DNA of 64,000 nt. Origin: Anaerolineae bacterium (lineage in GTDB: Bacteria; Chloroflexota; Anaerolineae; Aggregatilineales; Phototrophicaceae). Each line of letters starts with the position of its first letter. Positions within the stretch are counted from its first letter, which is position 1. The DNA is taken from contig JAJECX010000025.1 of assembly GCA_022821805.1 (NCBI GenBank), positions 62,001 to 126,000 of the forward strand. The letters are read 5' to 3'. A program made the position numbers and the translations under genes. Below, piece after piece: positions 33,802 through 39,255 of the stretch. The notes under the pieces are model-generated. The model had not been told where the DNA came from and ran no database searches. It saw nothing but the letters and a program-made list of their open reading frames with translations.

Positions 33802-34144
33802 AGGCAGGTCGGCTCCGTCATTGGACAGTATAGATACAATATAACTATAGCGTGTTTCCGCGGATCGCGCAAGACTGAAGGAGAAAATTACAGAACTTCA
33901 CATATTACAAAGTATTATAAGAGCTTGCTGGCGGGAATGCCCCTCGTCCGGCTGCCGCGAGTTGAAGGGGATAGAACAAATATGCTAAGGTTGTTGGCAT
34001 GCAAATCCGCCACCTAAAGAGAGATTATCGCGGCTGGCTCAATGTCGCCATATAATCGGTAGCGCTGGCAAATGGATACGATGGGATAGGCAGATCGACT
34101 GGACATCGAAAAAACTTTCCAAAGCGCAGTCAGAGATTCTGGAA
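33802..34144. other. Gap between the parAB operon and the helicase cassette
   Basis: 343 bases that contain the operator-like repeat and presumably the promoter of the minus-strand operon (TATACT on the minus strand at 33827-33832), then, from ATG 33999, a short frame reading MQIRHLKRDYRGWLNVAI before a stop. This frame looks like the true N-terminus of the downstream helicase gene, displaced by a two-base shift near 34052. Confidence 0.5.
33829..33849. promoter_or_regulatory. Operator-like inverted repeat upstream of the wHTH-parA-parB operon
   Basis: TATAGATA and TAACTATA flank a short AT-rich centre (symmetry TATAGnTA/TAnCTATA). It overlaps the minus-strand TATACT box, a typical place for an autoregulatory operator. 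Confidence 0.45.
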
Positions 34145-36214
34145 TTGCCGCTTGATTGCGGCATCTGGCTGGAAGGCATCGCCGGCAGCGGCAAGACCAC
34201 CGCCGCTGTTCGGCGTGTCCTGCATTTGCTTGCTAGCGGTGTACCGGCGGAGTCGATCCTGATATTTGTTCCGCAGCGTTCTCTAGCGCAGCCCTATATT
34301 CTCGCCTTGCGCGGGCTCACGAGCCACCGCGGCGGGCAGGTCTCTGTGCACACGATCGGAAGTTTGTCTCTGCAGCTGGTGGAGACATTTTGGTTCCTAA
34401 TCGCCGGGGACGCCGGCTTCAAGCATCCGCAGGACCTGCCGAATTTCCTCAGCCTGGAACTGGCGCAGTATTTTATGACGCGCGCCATCGAACCGCTGGT
34501 CGAGGAGCGGGATTACTTCAGCAGTGTGCGTATTGACCGGCCCCGGTTATACAGCCAGATTGTCGACAATATGAACAAAGCGGCGCTGGTTGGCTTTCCA
34601 ATCAGCGAGATCGGAACGCGTCTGAAATCGGCGCTTGCCAGTGGGGTGGAGCAGGCGCATATTTATGATGATGCGCAGACCTGCGCCATGGCGTTTCGGA
34701 AATACTGCCTGGAACATAATCTGCTGGACTTTTCGCTGCAGCTTGAGGTATTCCGCGAACATGTCTGGGCGGCGCCGCAGGCGCAGCGGTATCTGCGCGG
34801 TCGCTACCGCCACCTTATTGTCGATGGCGTAGAAGAAGACAACCTGGCTTCGCACGAATTGATCAACAGCCTGCTGGAGAGTTGCCAGTCGGCGCTAATC
34901 GTATGCGACCGCGATGCCGGCTTTCGCCGATTCCTGGGCGCCGATCCAGATAGCGCGCAAAGATTGCGCGAGCGCTGTGAGGTGAGAGCCACGTTCGAAG
35001 ATTCCTTCGTGATGGGGGCGGAAGTTTCGGCGCTGGGCGCGGCATTGGCGGCGCAGCTGGGCGCTGCCGACACAGCGGAAAGCGCAGCCGACCCGCGGCG
35101 CGCTTTGATCACGGAGGCGCACCGCTATCATCCGGAAATGGTGGATTGGGTGGCGACGCAGGTGGAAGCGCTGGTGCATGAGCGGGAGGCGCCGCCAAAC
35201 GAGATCGTGATCCTGGCGCCCTTTCTCTCGGACGCGCTTCGCTTTGGCTTGGTGGATGGCTTGGAAAGGCGCGGGATTCCTTTGCGCACCCATCGTCCAT
35301 CGCGGGCGCTGCGCGATGAGCCGGCCGCCCGCACCTTGCTCACGCTGGCGCGCCTGGCGCATCCGCATTGGCGCCTGCCGCCGACCGATTTCGATGTCGC
35401 ATTCGCTCTGATGGCGGCGATAGACGGTCTTGATTTGGTCCGCGCCAAGCTGTTGACCGAAATGCTCTATCGCAGGGAACGTTTGCTGCCATTCGCTGAA
35501 GTTCACGCAACGGCGATGCAAGAACGAATCACCTTTGATCTGGGCGAGCGCTACGACCGACTGGCAAACTGGCTGAATCGCTATATCGACGGCGGAAGAA
35601 CGGATGCGATCGATATCTTCTTTCGGCGGATATTCGGCGGATTGCTTTCGCGCGCCGGCTTCGGCTTTCACGGTAATATTGACGCTGGCAATATCAGCAT
35701 GAATCTAGTGGACTCGGCGCGAGAGTTCCGCTGGTCGCTCGATTTCATGAGCCGTTATGATGCCCAAATCGACTTGGGCTTGGATTATGTGAGAATGGTG
35801 GACCGCGGCGTCATCGCCAATTCATATCTGCGCGACTGGATCGCCGATGTCGAAGAAGGCGTCTTGATCGCCCCTGCCTATACATTCTTGCTGAACAATC
35901 GGCCGGTGGATTATCAGTTCTGGCTCAACATCGGCGGCGAAGGCTGGTCGCGGCGTTTGTATCAACCTTTAACCCATCCCTATGTGCTGAGCCGAGGCTG
36001 GCCGCCCGGCGCCCTCTGGTCGGAGGATGATGAGCAGGCGATGAACCGTCTGACGCTCGGCCGGCTGCTGCTGGCGTTGACGCGCCGCTGCCGAAAGGCG
36101 GTGTATCTCGGATACAACGAACTGAGTGAAAGCGGATACGAGCCGCGCGGCTTGCTGCTCGAAACGATTCAGAGCCTGCTGCGGCGGCTGGCGCGGGAAG
36201 AGCAACATGTTTAA
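34145..36214 (+). CDS. UvrD/AddB-like helicase-family protein with Walker A
   Basis: 689 residues from TTG 34145; the true start is probably upstream. It shows Walker A GIAGSGKTT at residues 11-19, then the superfamily 1 motif Ia region (ILIFVPQRSLAQPYI). The motif II position reads HLIVDGVEEDN instead of DE.QD, suggesting a weakened or inactive ATPase resembling AddB-type subunits. C-terminal LGRLLLALTRRCRKAVYLGY corresponds to motif VI. The in-frame sequence before 34145 (GKWIRWDRQIDWTSKKLS) is also protein-like but has no start codon until a frameshift is invoked. The last codons overlap the next helicase gene by eight bases. First gene of a helicase-helicase-nuclease cassette. Confidence 0.75.
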   Translation: MPLDCGIWLEGIAGSGKTTAAVRRVLHLLASGVPAESILIFVPQRSLAQPYILALRGLTSHRGGQVSVHTIGSLSLQLVETFWFLIAGDAGFKHPQDLPNFLSLELAQYFMTRAIEPLVEERDYFSSVRIDRPRLYSQIVDNMNKAALVGFPISEIGTRLKSALASGVEQAHIYDDAQTCAMAFRKYCLEHNLLDFSLQLEVFREHVWAAPQAQRYLRGRYRHLIVDGVEEDNLASHELINSLLESCQSALIVCDRDAGFRRFLGADPDSAQRLRERCEVRATFEDSFVMGAEVSALGAALAAQLGAADTAESAADPRRALITEAHRYHPEMVDWVATQVEALVHEREAPPNEIVILAPFLSDALRFGLVDGLERRGIPLRTHRPSRALRDEPAARTLLTLARLAHPHWRLPPTDFDVAFALMAAIDGLDLVRAKLLTEMLYRRERLLPFAEVHATAMQERITFDLGERYDRLANWLNRYIDGGRTDAIDIFFRRIFGGLLSRAGFGFHGNIDAGNISMNLVDSAREFRWSLDFMSRYDAQIDLGLDYVRMVDRGVIANSYLRDWIADVEEGVLIAPAYTFLLNNRPVDYQFWLNIGGEGWSRRLYQPLTHPYVLSRGWPPGALWSEDDEQAMNRLTLGRLLLALTRRCRKAVYLGYNELSESGYEPRGLLLETIQSLLRRLAREEQHV

Positions 36215-38444: not shown

Positions 38445-39255
38445 TTTTGCCTTCACCCAGGGCAGCCTGGGTGATTATGCCGATTGCGCCCGCCGTTTTG
38501 AGCTGCGCTTCATCAAGCGCCTGCGCTACCCGGCGCTGGAAGTGCAGGACGCGCTGCAATTCGAGACGCGGACGCGGCAGGGCGCGCGCTTCCACAAAAT
38601 GGTGCAGCAGCATCTGCTGGGCGTGCCGGCGGAGGCGCTGGCGGAATCGCTGGCTGACGATGAAGAGCTGGCGCGCTGGTGGGCGAATTACCGGGCGCGC
38701 GGCTTGACCGATTTGCCAGCGCAGCGCTTGAGCGAGATCACCTTGCAGACGCATCTGGCCGGTCGCCGTCTGGTGGCGAAATACGATTTGCTGGCGCTGG
38801 CGCCGGGCGGGGCGGCTGTCATCGTCGATTGGAAGACGGGCGCGCGCGTCCCATCGCAGTCAAGCTTGCGCGGGCGCATGCAGACGATTGTCTATCGTTA
38901 CGTGTTGGCGCAAGCCGGCGCCCACCTCTACGCTGACGAGCGCATACCGCCGGAGCGCATCCGCATGGATTATGTCTACGTGGCGAGTGACGGAGAGCGC
39001 TTGAGCTTCGCCTACTCGGCGGCGCAGATGCGCCAGGACGAAGCGCTGCTGGCGGAGATGATCGCCGCGATTGATCAGGCTGATCAATTTGCGCTAACCA
39101 ATGAGTTGCGGCGCTGCCGCTTCTGCAGTTACCGCTCGCTCTGTGATCGGGGCGGGGCGGGGCGGCTGGAAGATTTCGATATTGACGAATACGAAGACGA
39201 GGAAGAAGAAACTTTCGCGCTGGATTTTGATCAGATCGCCGAGATTGAGTTTTGA
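38428..39255 (+). CDS. PD-(D/E)XK nuclease, Cas4/AddB/RecB-like, with iron-sulfur cysteines
   Basis: 275 residues. Nuclease signatures: H56 (GARFHKMV), D120 (AKYD), D134 and K136 (VDWKTG), and Q152...Y156 (QTIVY). Four cysteines in the Cas4/AddB/Dna2 pattern: C20 near the N-terminus and C230-x2-C233-x5-C239 (CRFCSYRSLC), expected to bind a 4Fe-4S cluster that staples the nuclease. The C-terminal tail is strongly acidic (EYEDEEEE). Such enzymes resect DNA ends. No cas1/cas2 is near, so this belongs with the two helicases and not with CRISPR. Confidence 0.92.
   Translation: MSLSDDFAFTQGSLGDYADCARRFELRFIKRLRYPALEVQDALQFETRTRQGARFHKMVQQHLLGVPAEALAESLADDEELARWWANYRARGLTDLPAQRLSEITLQTHLAGRRLVAKYDLLALAPGGAAVIVDWKTGARVPSQSSLRGRMQTIVYRYVLAQAGAHLYADERIPPERIRMDYVYVASDGERLSFAYSAAQMRQDEALLAEMIAAIDQADQFALTNELRRCRFCSYRSLCDRGGAGRLEDFDIDEYEDEEEETFALDFDQIAEIEF

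What the first reader, a model, noticed from the sequence alone, without database searches (positions are those of the whole stretch)
33999..39255. Helicase-helicase-Cas4/AddB-like nuclease cassette next to the PrimPol/ParAB island
Three overlapping genes encode an AddB-like protein with Walker A but a degraded motif II, a full UvrD-type motor, and a stand-alone Fe-S PD-(D/E)XK nuclease (C20, C230, C233, C239). In AddAB the nuclease and motor domains are fused; here they are split over three proteins. This could be a variant end-resection machine or a DNA-degrading defence module; the sequence cannot separate the two.
Basis: partly seen in the sequence, partly recalled or inferred. Interest (0 to 1): 0.6.

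Follow-up and report, generated by a model that had tools for sequence, protein, structure and literature searches.

The report
Split AddAB-like DNA-end resection machine
Three neighbouring genes, usually followed by the repair nuclease gene recJ, look like a DNA-break processing machine of the AddAB kind cut into three separate proteins; it occurs almost only in one class of bacteria (Anaerolineae), where most sampled carriers have no detectable ordinary AddAB.

Summary
Three overlapping genes encode Hel1 (complete SF1 helicase fold; Walker A kept, catalytic Glu of motif II lost in 44/44 relatives), Uvr2 (all checked SF1 motor residues invariant) and Nuc3 (stand-alone PD-(D/E)XK nuclease; four invariant Cys). 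The omitted part is recJ, the fourth gene of the conserved cluster.

The set is nearly class-specific (Anaerolineae). Hel1 is found in 43 of 53 sampled class genomes outside the order and in no credible form in 345 genomes of other classes of the phylum. In 80 genomes Hel1 and Uvr2 occur together or not at all (60 both, 19 neither, 1 contig-edge case), even where the genes lie far apart. The window's genome also has ordinary addAB; 37 of 60 Hel1+ genomes have no detectable AddB. No conserved defence neighbours or viral copies were found.

Best reading: a split, single-nuclease AddAB/AdnAB-like resectase for recombinational repair, not a defence module. New detail: Nuc3 ends in a conserved acidic peptide with a terminal aromatic (60/68), resembling SSB tails, probably a docking tag. 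Complex formation and activity are inferred, not shown. I found no description of this set in the papers searched.

The parts
34145..36214 (+). Hel1: AddB-like SF1A helicase fold without nuclease domain. Walker A Lys17 and Mg-binding Asp227 kept, catalytic Glu replaced by Gly (Asn in most relatives), motif III Gln lost: predicted to bind ATP but not to be a motor. True start lies between 33989 and 34145 (no canonical codon there).
36207..38444 (+). Uvr2: UvrD-type SF1A helicase with all motor motifs, no nuclease domain
38428..39255 (+). Nuc3: stand-alone PD-(D/E)XK nuclease of AddB/AdnA/Cas4 type; D120, D134, K136, Q152, H56 and the four Cys C20/C230/C233/C239 (predicted 4Fe-4S) invariant
39175..39252 (+). 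Nuc3 disordered acidic linker and conserved C-terminal peptide (window: ...ALDFDQIAEIEF), probable docking tag
40472..42769 (+). RecJ (NCBIfam TIGR00644, 486 bits against a cut-off of 397), fourth gene of the conserved cluster in relatives
39273..40472 (+). Mandelate-racemase/enolase family gene inserted between nuc3 and recJ in the window's genus only; not part of the system

Best explanation
The genes encode a three-protein counterpart of AddAB/AdnAB that processes DNA ends for recombinational repair. Uvr2 is the only motor and pulls the complex 3'-to-5' along one strand. Hel1 takes the place of the inactive helicase half of AddB: a complete helicase fold that binds ATP but cannot hydrolyse it efficiently, serving as strand-splitter or scanner. 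Nuc3 takes the place of AddB's Fe-S nuclease domain, acting in trans and probably tethered through its conserved C-terminal peptide. With only the AddB-type nuclease, the enzyme should mainly cut the 5'-ended strand and so leave a 3' overhang for RecA, helped by the co-encoded 5'-3' exonuclease RecJ. Shown by computation: gene content, motif state, predicted folds, linkage and co-inheritance. Inferred: complex formation, strand polarity, the docking role of the tail and the repair function. I put co-function in DNA-end processing or repair at about 0.8 and the specific three-subunit complex at about 0.65.
For: Hel1 aligns with the helicase half of the genome's own AddB (hhalign E 8e-8). Its AF2 model (pLDDT 90.9) is a full SF1A fold with its highest listed query-normalised TM-score to AdnB (9np6_B, 0.71, rmsd 6.6 A); by E-value UvrD ranks first. 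Catalytic Glu is N/G/H in 44 of 44, Walker Lys 44 of 44. Uvr2: 17 of 17 checked motor residues invariant. Nuc3 aligns with AddB's C-terminal nuclease including the Cys (E 5e-8) and its model best matches the AdnA nuclease domain. Hel1/Uvr2 co-occurrence 60/0/1/19, including genomes where the genes are far apart and joint absences scattered across several genera. Order Hel1-Uvr2-Nuc3 in 44 of 66 loci, with recJ in 29 of 59. Six cassette-minus genomes of the window's family all carry AddA and AddB. AddB nuclease cuts the 5' strand and AddB's helicase fold is an inactive scanner (PMC4824097).
Against: No biochemical or interaction data. Six of 60 Hel1+ genomes lack a detectable Nuc3, so Hel1-Uvr2 may work without it. 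Eight class genomes lack both the cassette and a detectable AddB, so neither is obligatory. Profile matches of Hel1 and Nuc3 to AddB are remote (18% identity), and Hel1 matches Uvr2 about equally well (E 8e-9), so an AddB origin for Hel1 is not established. Uvr2's sisterhood to AddA+RecB is weakly supported on a very long stem.
Confidence: 0.68

Rival explanations
1. Anti-phage or anti-plasmid defence module: the helicases unwind and the Cas4-like nuclease degrades invading DNA.
For: Uvr2 and Nuc3 score against PADLOC GajB, RTasHel and Cas4-like models. UvrD-Cas4-like fusions in other bacteria lie in restriction-modification contexts (PMC5704561). A nuclease next in structure to Nuc3 is an Argonaute-associated Cas4-like protein.
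Against: Class-wide presence, no defence gene recognised among the conserved neighbours, recJ as the constant partner, housekeeping surroundings, no viral relatives. The GajB scores are generic UvrD similarity.
Confidence: 0.1
2. Not one complex: Uvr2-Hel1 is a helicase pair (for example for replication-fork or RNA-polymerase conflicts) and Nuc3, alone or with RecJ, is a separate end-trimming nuclease that is merely co-transcribed.
For: Six Hel1+/Uvr2+ genomes lack detectable Nuc3, while Hel1 and Uvr2 never part. In several families Nuc3 lies far from the pair.
Against: Nuc3 is found only in genomes with Uvr2 and is jointly absent in 19 of 19 Hel1-/Uvr2- genomes; the tight order Hel1-Uvr2-Nuc3 recurs; AddB is the same two pieces in one chain.
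Confidence: 0.17
3. Ordinary UvrD plus Cas4-like operon, as reported for Clostridiales, with a decayed UvrD paralogue beside it.
For: Unfused UvrD and Cas4-like operons outside defence contexts are described (PMC5704561).
Against: Hel1 is not decayed: its predicted fold is complete, 21 positions are invariant in 44 sequences at 30-83% identity to the window protein, and it is as consistently retained as Uvr2.
Confidence: 0.05

Closest known systems
AddAB (Bacillus type; also present in this genome on contig C31)
   Same: Inactive helicase half plus Fe-S nuclease of AddB kind, and an active UvrD-like motor; remote profile homology to AddB over both halves
   Different: Three chains instead of two; no AddA-type nuclease domain; motif II different (DNxEE rather than VDGYxxF); recJ in the gene cluster; far below the NCBIfam AddA cut-offs
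AdnAB (mycobacteria)
   Same: Hel1 has its highest listed query TM-score to AdnB, and Nuc3 best matches the AdnA nuclease domain
   Different: Adn subunits each fuse a motor and a nuclease; here none does
UvrD plus Cas4-like unfused operon of Clostridiales (PMC5704561)
   Same: Stand-alone Cas4-like PF12705 nuclease next to a UvrD-type helicase, context not suggestive of defence
   Different: No Hel1-like third protein or recJ link is described there; homology to the present genes not tested
ACE1, Argonaute-associated Cas4-family nuclease (PDB 9iab, 9iac)
   Same: Nearest solved stand-alone nuclease by sequence (E 8e-5)
   Different: Argonaute context; 13-14% identity in the fold comparison

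Membership tests
AddAB | AddB chain with inactive helicase half fused to C-terminal Fe-S PD-(D/E)XK nuclease | tested here: not met
   Both halves present but as separate genes Hel1 and Nuc3
AddAB | AddA chain with UvrD motor fused to C-terminal nuclease (two nucleases per complex) | tested here: not met
   Uvr2 ends soon after motif VI and has no nuclease domain; one nuclease in the set
AddAB | Scores above NCBIfam AddA models | tested here: not met
   Uvr2 scores 72-74 bits against cut-offs of 708-861
AddAB | Chi-dependent switch | not testable with these tools
   Needs biochemistry
AdnAB | Two subunits, each with motor and nuclease domain | tested here: not met
   Three chains, one nuclease
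Gabija | GajB helicase encoded with GajA (OLD-type nuclease) | tested here: not met
   None of the five window proteins scanned matches GajA; the neighbouring nuclease is PF12705
Cas4 | Scores above the Cas4 cut-off or lies with cas1/cas2 | tested here: not met
   TIGR00372 22 bits against a cut-off of 65; no cas gene recognised among the conserved neighbours
PDDEXK_1 superfamily (PF12705) | Above gathering score with catalytic D, D-x-K, Q and Fe-S Cys | tested here: met
   89 bits against 22; residues invariant in 22 sequences
SF1A UvrD-like helicase (active motor), Uvr2 | Motifs I-VI intact | tested here: met
   17 of 17 checked residues invariant in 18 sequences
SF1A UvrD-like helicase (active motor), Hel1 | Catalytic Glu in motif II and Gln in motif III | tested here: not met
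   Glu absent in 44 of 44; the motif III Gln position is Ala or Gly in 44 of 44

The most novel reading that the evidence does not exclude
A resection enzyme with a single, trans-acting nuclease: the Hel1-Uvr2 pair opens the end, and Nuc3 docks through an SSB-like C-terminal peptide and trims only the 5' strand, so that 3' overhangs are made without a Chi switch. In most sampled Anaerolineae carriers it would be the only AddAB-like pathway.
Probability: 0.33. Interest if true: 0.75.

Novelty: new variant of a known kind. Interest (0 to 1): 0.58.

Why it matters
Bacterial double-strand-break resection is described through RecBCD, AddAB and AdnAB, all with motors and nucleases fused. A naturally split, single-nuclease version would let each function be assayed alone, would test whether the inactive helicase subunit is the scanner, and would ask whether a Chi switch is needed when the 3'-strand nuclease is missing. 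It would also fill a gap in the repair inventory of Anaerolineae, including the isolate Anaerolinea thermolimosa IMO-1, where a PF12705 search found only stand-alone nucleases.

Tried and rejected
Replacement of AddAB in this genome: rejected, addAB present on C31. Functional link to parAB/PrimPol: rejected, genus-only and movable. Phage origin: two viral-collection scans found no relatives. Gabija or other PADLOC system: only generic helicase or nuclease similarity. Uvr2 as AddA minus nuclease by tree: inconclusive, long stem and few references. Paper searches for a prior description found none in the held library, which lacks most subscription papers.

Full report
WHAT IS THERE. Hel1 (TTG 34145 to 36214, true start upstream and unresolved), Uvr2 (36207-38444) and Nuc3 (38428-39255) overlap on the + strand. 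Downstream, after an enolase-family gene, lies recJ (40472-42769), above its NCBIfam cut-off. Pfam gives UvrD-helicase for Hel1 (45 bits) and Uvr2 (151), and PDDEXK_1 for Nuc3 (89).

ANATOMY. Hel1: in 44 homologues (30-83% identity to the window protein) the Walker A Lys and the motif II Asp are invariant, the catalytic Glu is Asn in 40, Gly in 2 and His in 2, and positions 230 and 231 are always Glu; the motif III Gln is Ala or Gly in all. The AF2 model (pLDDT 90.9) is a complete SF1A fold. Foldseek ranks UvrD first by E-value, but the highest query TM-score in the list is AdnB (0.71), and superpositions on AddB and on that AdnB chain have lower rmsd (6.6-8.5 A) than on UvrD (10.5-14 A). Profile comparison aligns it with the helicase half of AddB (E 8e-8) and with Uvr2 (E 8e-9). 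Uvr2: every checked motor residue is invariant in 18 sequences; it scores far below the cut-offs of PcrA, Rep, AddA and RecB models. Nuc3: catalytic residues and four Cys invariant in 22; the model matches the AdnA nuclease domain best, then Exo5, ACE1 and, lower, AddB; profile alignment to AddB residues 784-1080, E 5e-8.

NUC3 TAIL. After a variable, low-confidence linker, 60 of 68 distinct Nuc3 proteins end in [DE]-hydrophobic-x-[FY]-COOH, typically LDFDQIAEIEF; Hel1 (139), Uvr2 (87) and RecJ (31) show none. SSBs of these genomes end similarly (DDIPF, GEIPF, DDYAF, DEFPF), and E. coli SSB docks partners through MDFDDDIPF (PMC7913777). The tail persists in family f9, where Nuc3 is unlinked, but diverges in f7, f15 and part of f10. 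Docking is inferred; the longer conserved stretch may fit a dedicated partner better than a pure SSB mimic.

DISTRIBUTION. 124 of 151 genomes of the order have a strong Hel1 match (132 at E 0.001, eight of them weak). In the phylum sample 43 of 53 class genomes outside the order have it, and none credibly of 345 others (three weak hits in frames over 1000 aa). Named records are Anaerolineae/Chloroflexota, with one Fraserbacteria and two Acidobacteria MAGs, perhaps misassigned (only the best 80 of 395 relatives were listed).

CO-INHERITANCE. In 80 genomes: Hel1+/Uvr2+ 60, Hel1+/Uvr2- 0, Hel1-/Uvr2+ 1 (G019, partial Uvr2, apparently a contig-edge case), neither 19. Nuc3 is in 54 of 60 Hel1+ genomes and in no Hel1-/Uvr2- genome. 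The genomes are related, so these counts are not independent, but joint absences fall in several genera of the window's own family beside carriers. In f9 the genes are scattered, for example G262 at 2032, 2023 and 1680 kb, so co-inheritance is not just linkage. Among named loci with enough flank, Hel1-Uvr2-Nuc3 are adjacent in 44 of 66 and followed by recJ in 29 of 59. Neighbour clustering over 34 loci finds only these four genes shared by six or more families.

RELATION TO ADDAB. The own genome has AddB (1096 aa) and AddA (1201 aa) at C31. AddB is found in 23 of 60 Hel1+ genomes and not in 37; AddA follows much the same pattern. The AddB search used one sequence and so could miss divergent ones; a PF12705 scan of 43 genomes, 36 of them Hel1+, found long fused nuclease frames among AddB-minus carriers only in G453 and G178. 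All six cassette-minus genomes of the window's family have AddAB, but eight class genomes lack both, so strict complementarity is not claimed.

READING. Parts equal to AddB cut in two plus a nuclease-less motor, constant partnership with recJ, vertical inheritance and no defence or viral context make DNA-end resection the best explanation. AddB's nuclease trims the 5' strand while its inactive helicase fold scans the DNA (PMC4824097); by analogy this set would make 3' overhangs. That polarity, the complex and the function remain to be shown.

Noticed in passing
window 29409-33801: PrimPol, ParB, ParA and a small wHTH-like gene form a genus-level block next to Hel1. ParA is about 96% conserved where Hel1 is about 74%, and PrimPol only 46-66%. 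Cumulative GC skew is lowest near 24-26 kb, and the genome has just one other ParB_N hit: possibly the chromosomal partition/origin region.
   Followed up: partly
window 33989-34145: Hel1 has no ATG/GTG/TTG at the homologous N-terminus in the window; genus relatives show ATG, TTG or CTG near the expected place. Non-canonical start or sequence error.
   Followed up: partly
window 12262-19205: By eye, genes resembling type I restriction-modification subunits (HsdM-, HsdS-, HsdR-like), with small nucleotidyltransferase-like genes inside the block (14356) and upstream (1711).
   Followed up: no
G115, G061 (L041, L042) and f10 genomes: Hel1 and Uvr2 present without detectable Nuc3; G115 and G061 keep AddAB.
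   Followed up: partly
L045 (G013): Uvr2 is broken into several frames in this genome, although Hel1 and Nuc3 are intact.
   Followed up: no
class genomes: Most also carry a short PDDEXK_1/Cas4-like frame (170-260 aa), probably the solo-Cas4 reported for Chloroflexi (PMC5704561).
   Followed up: no
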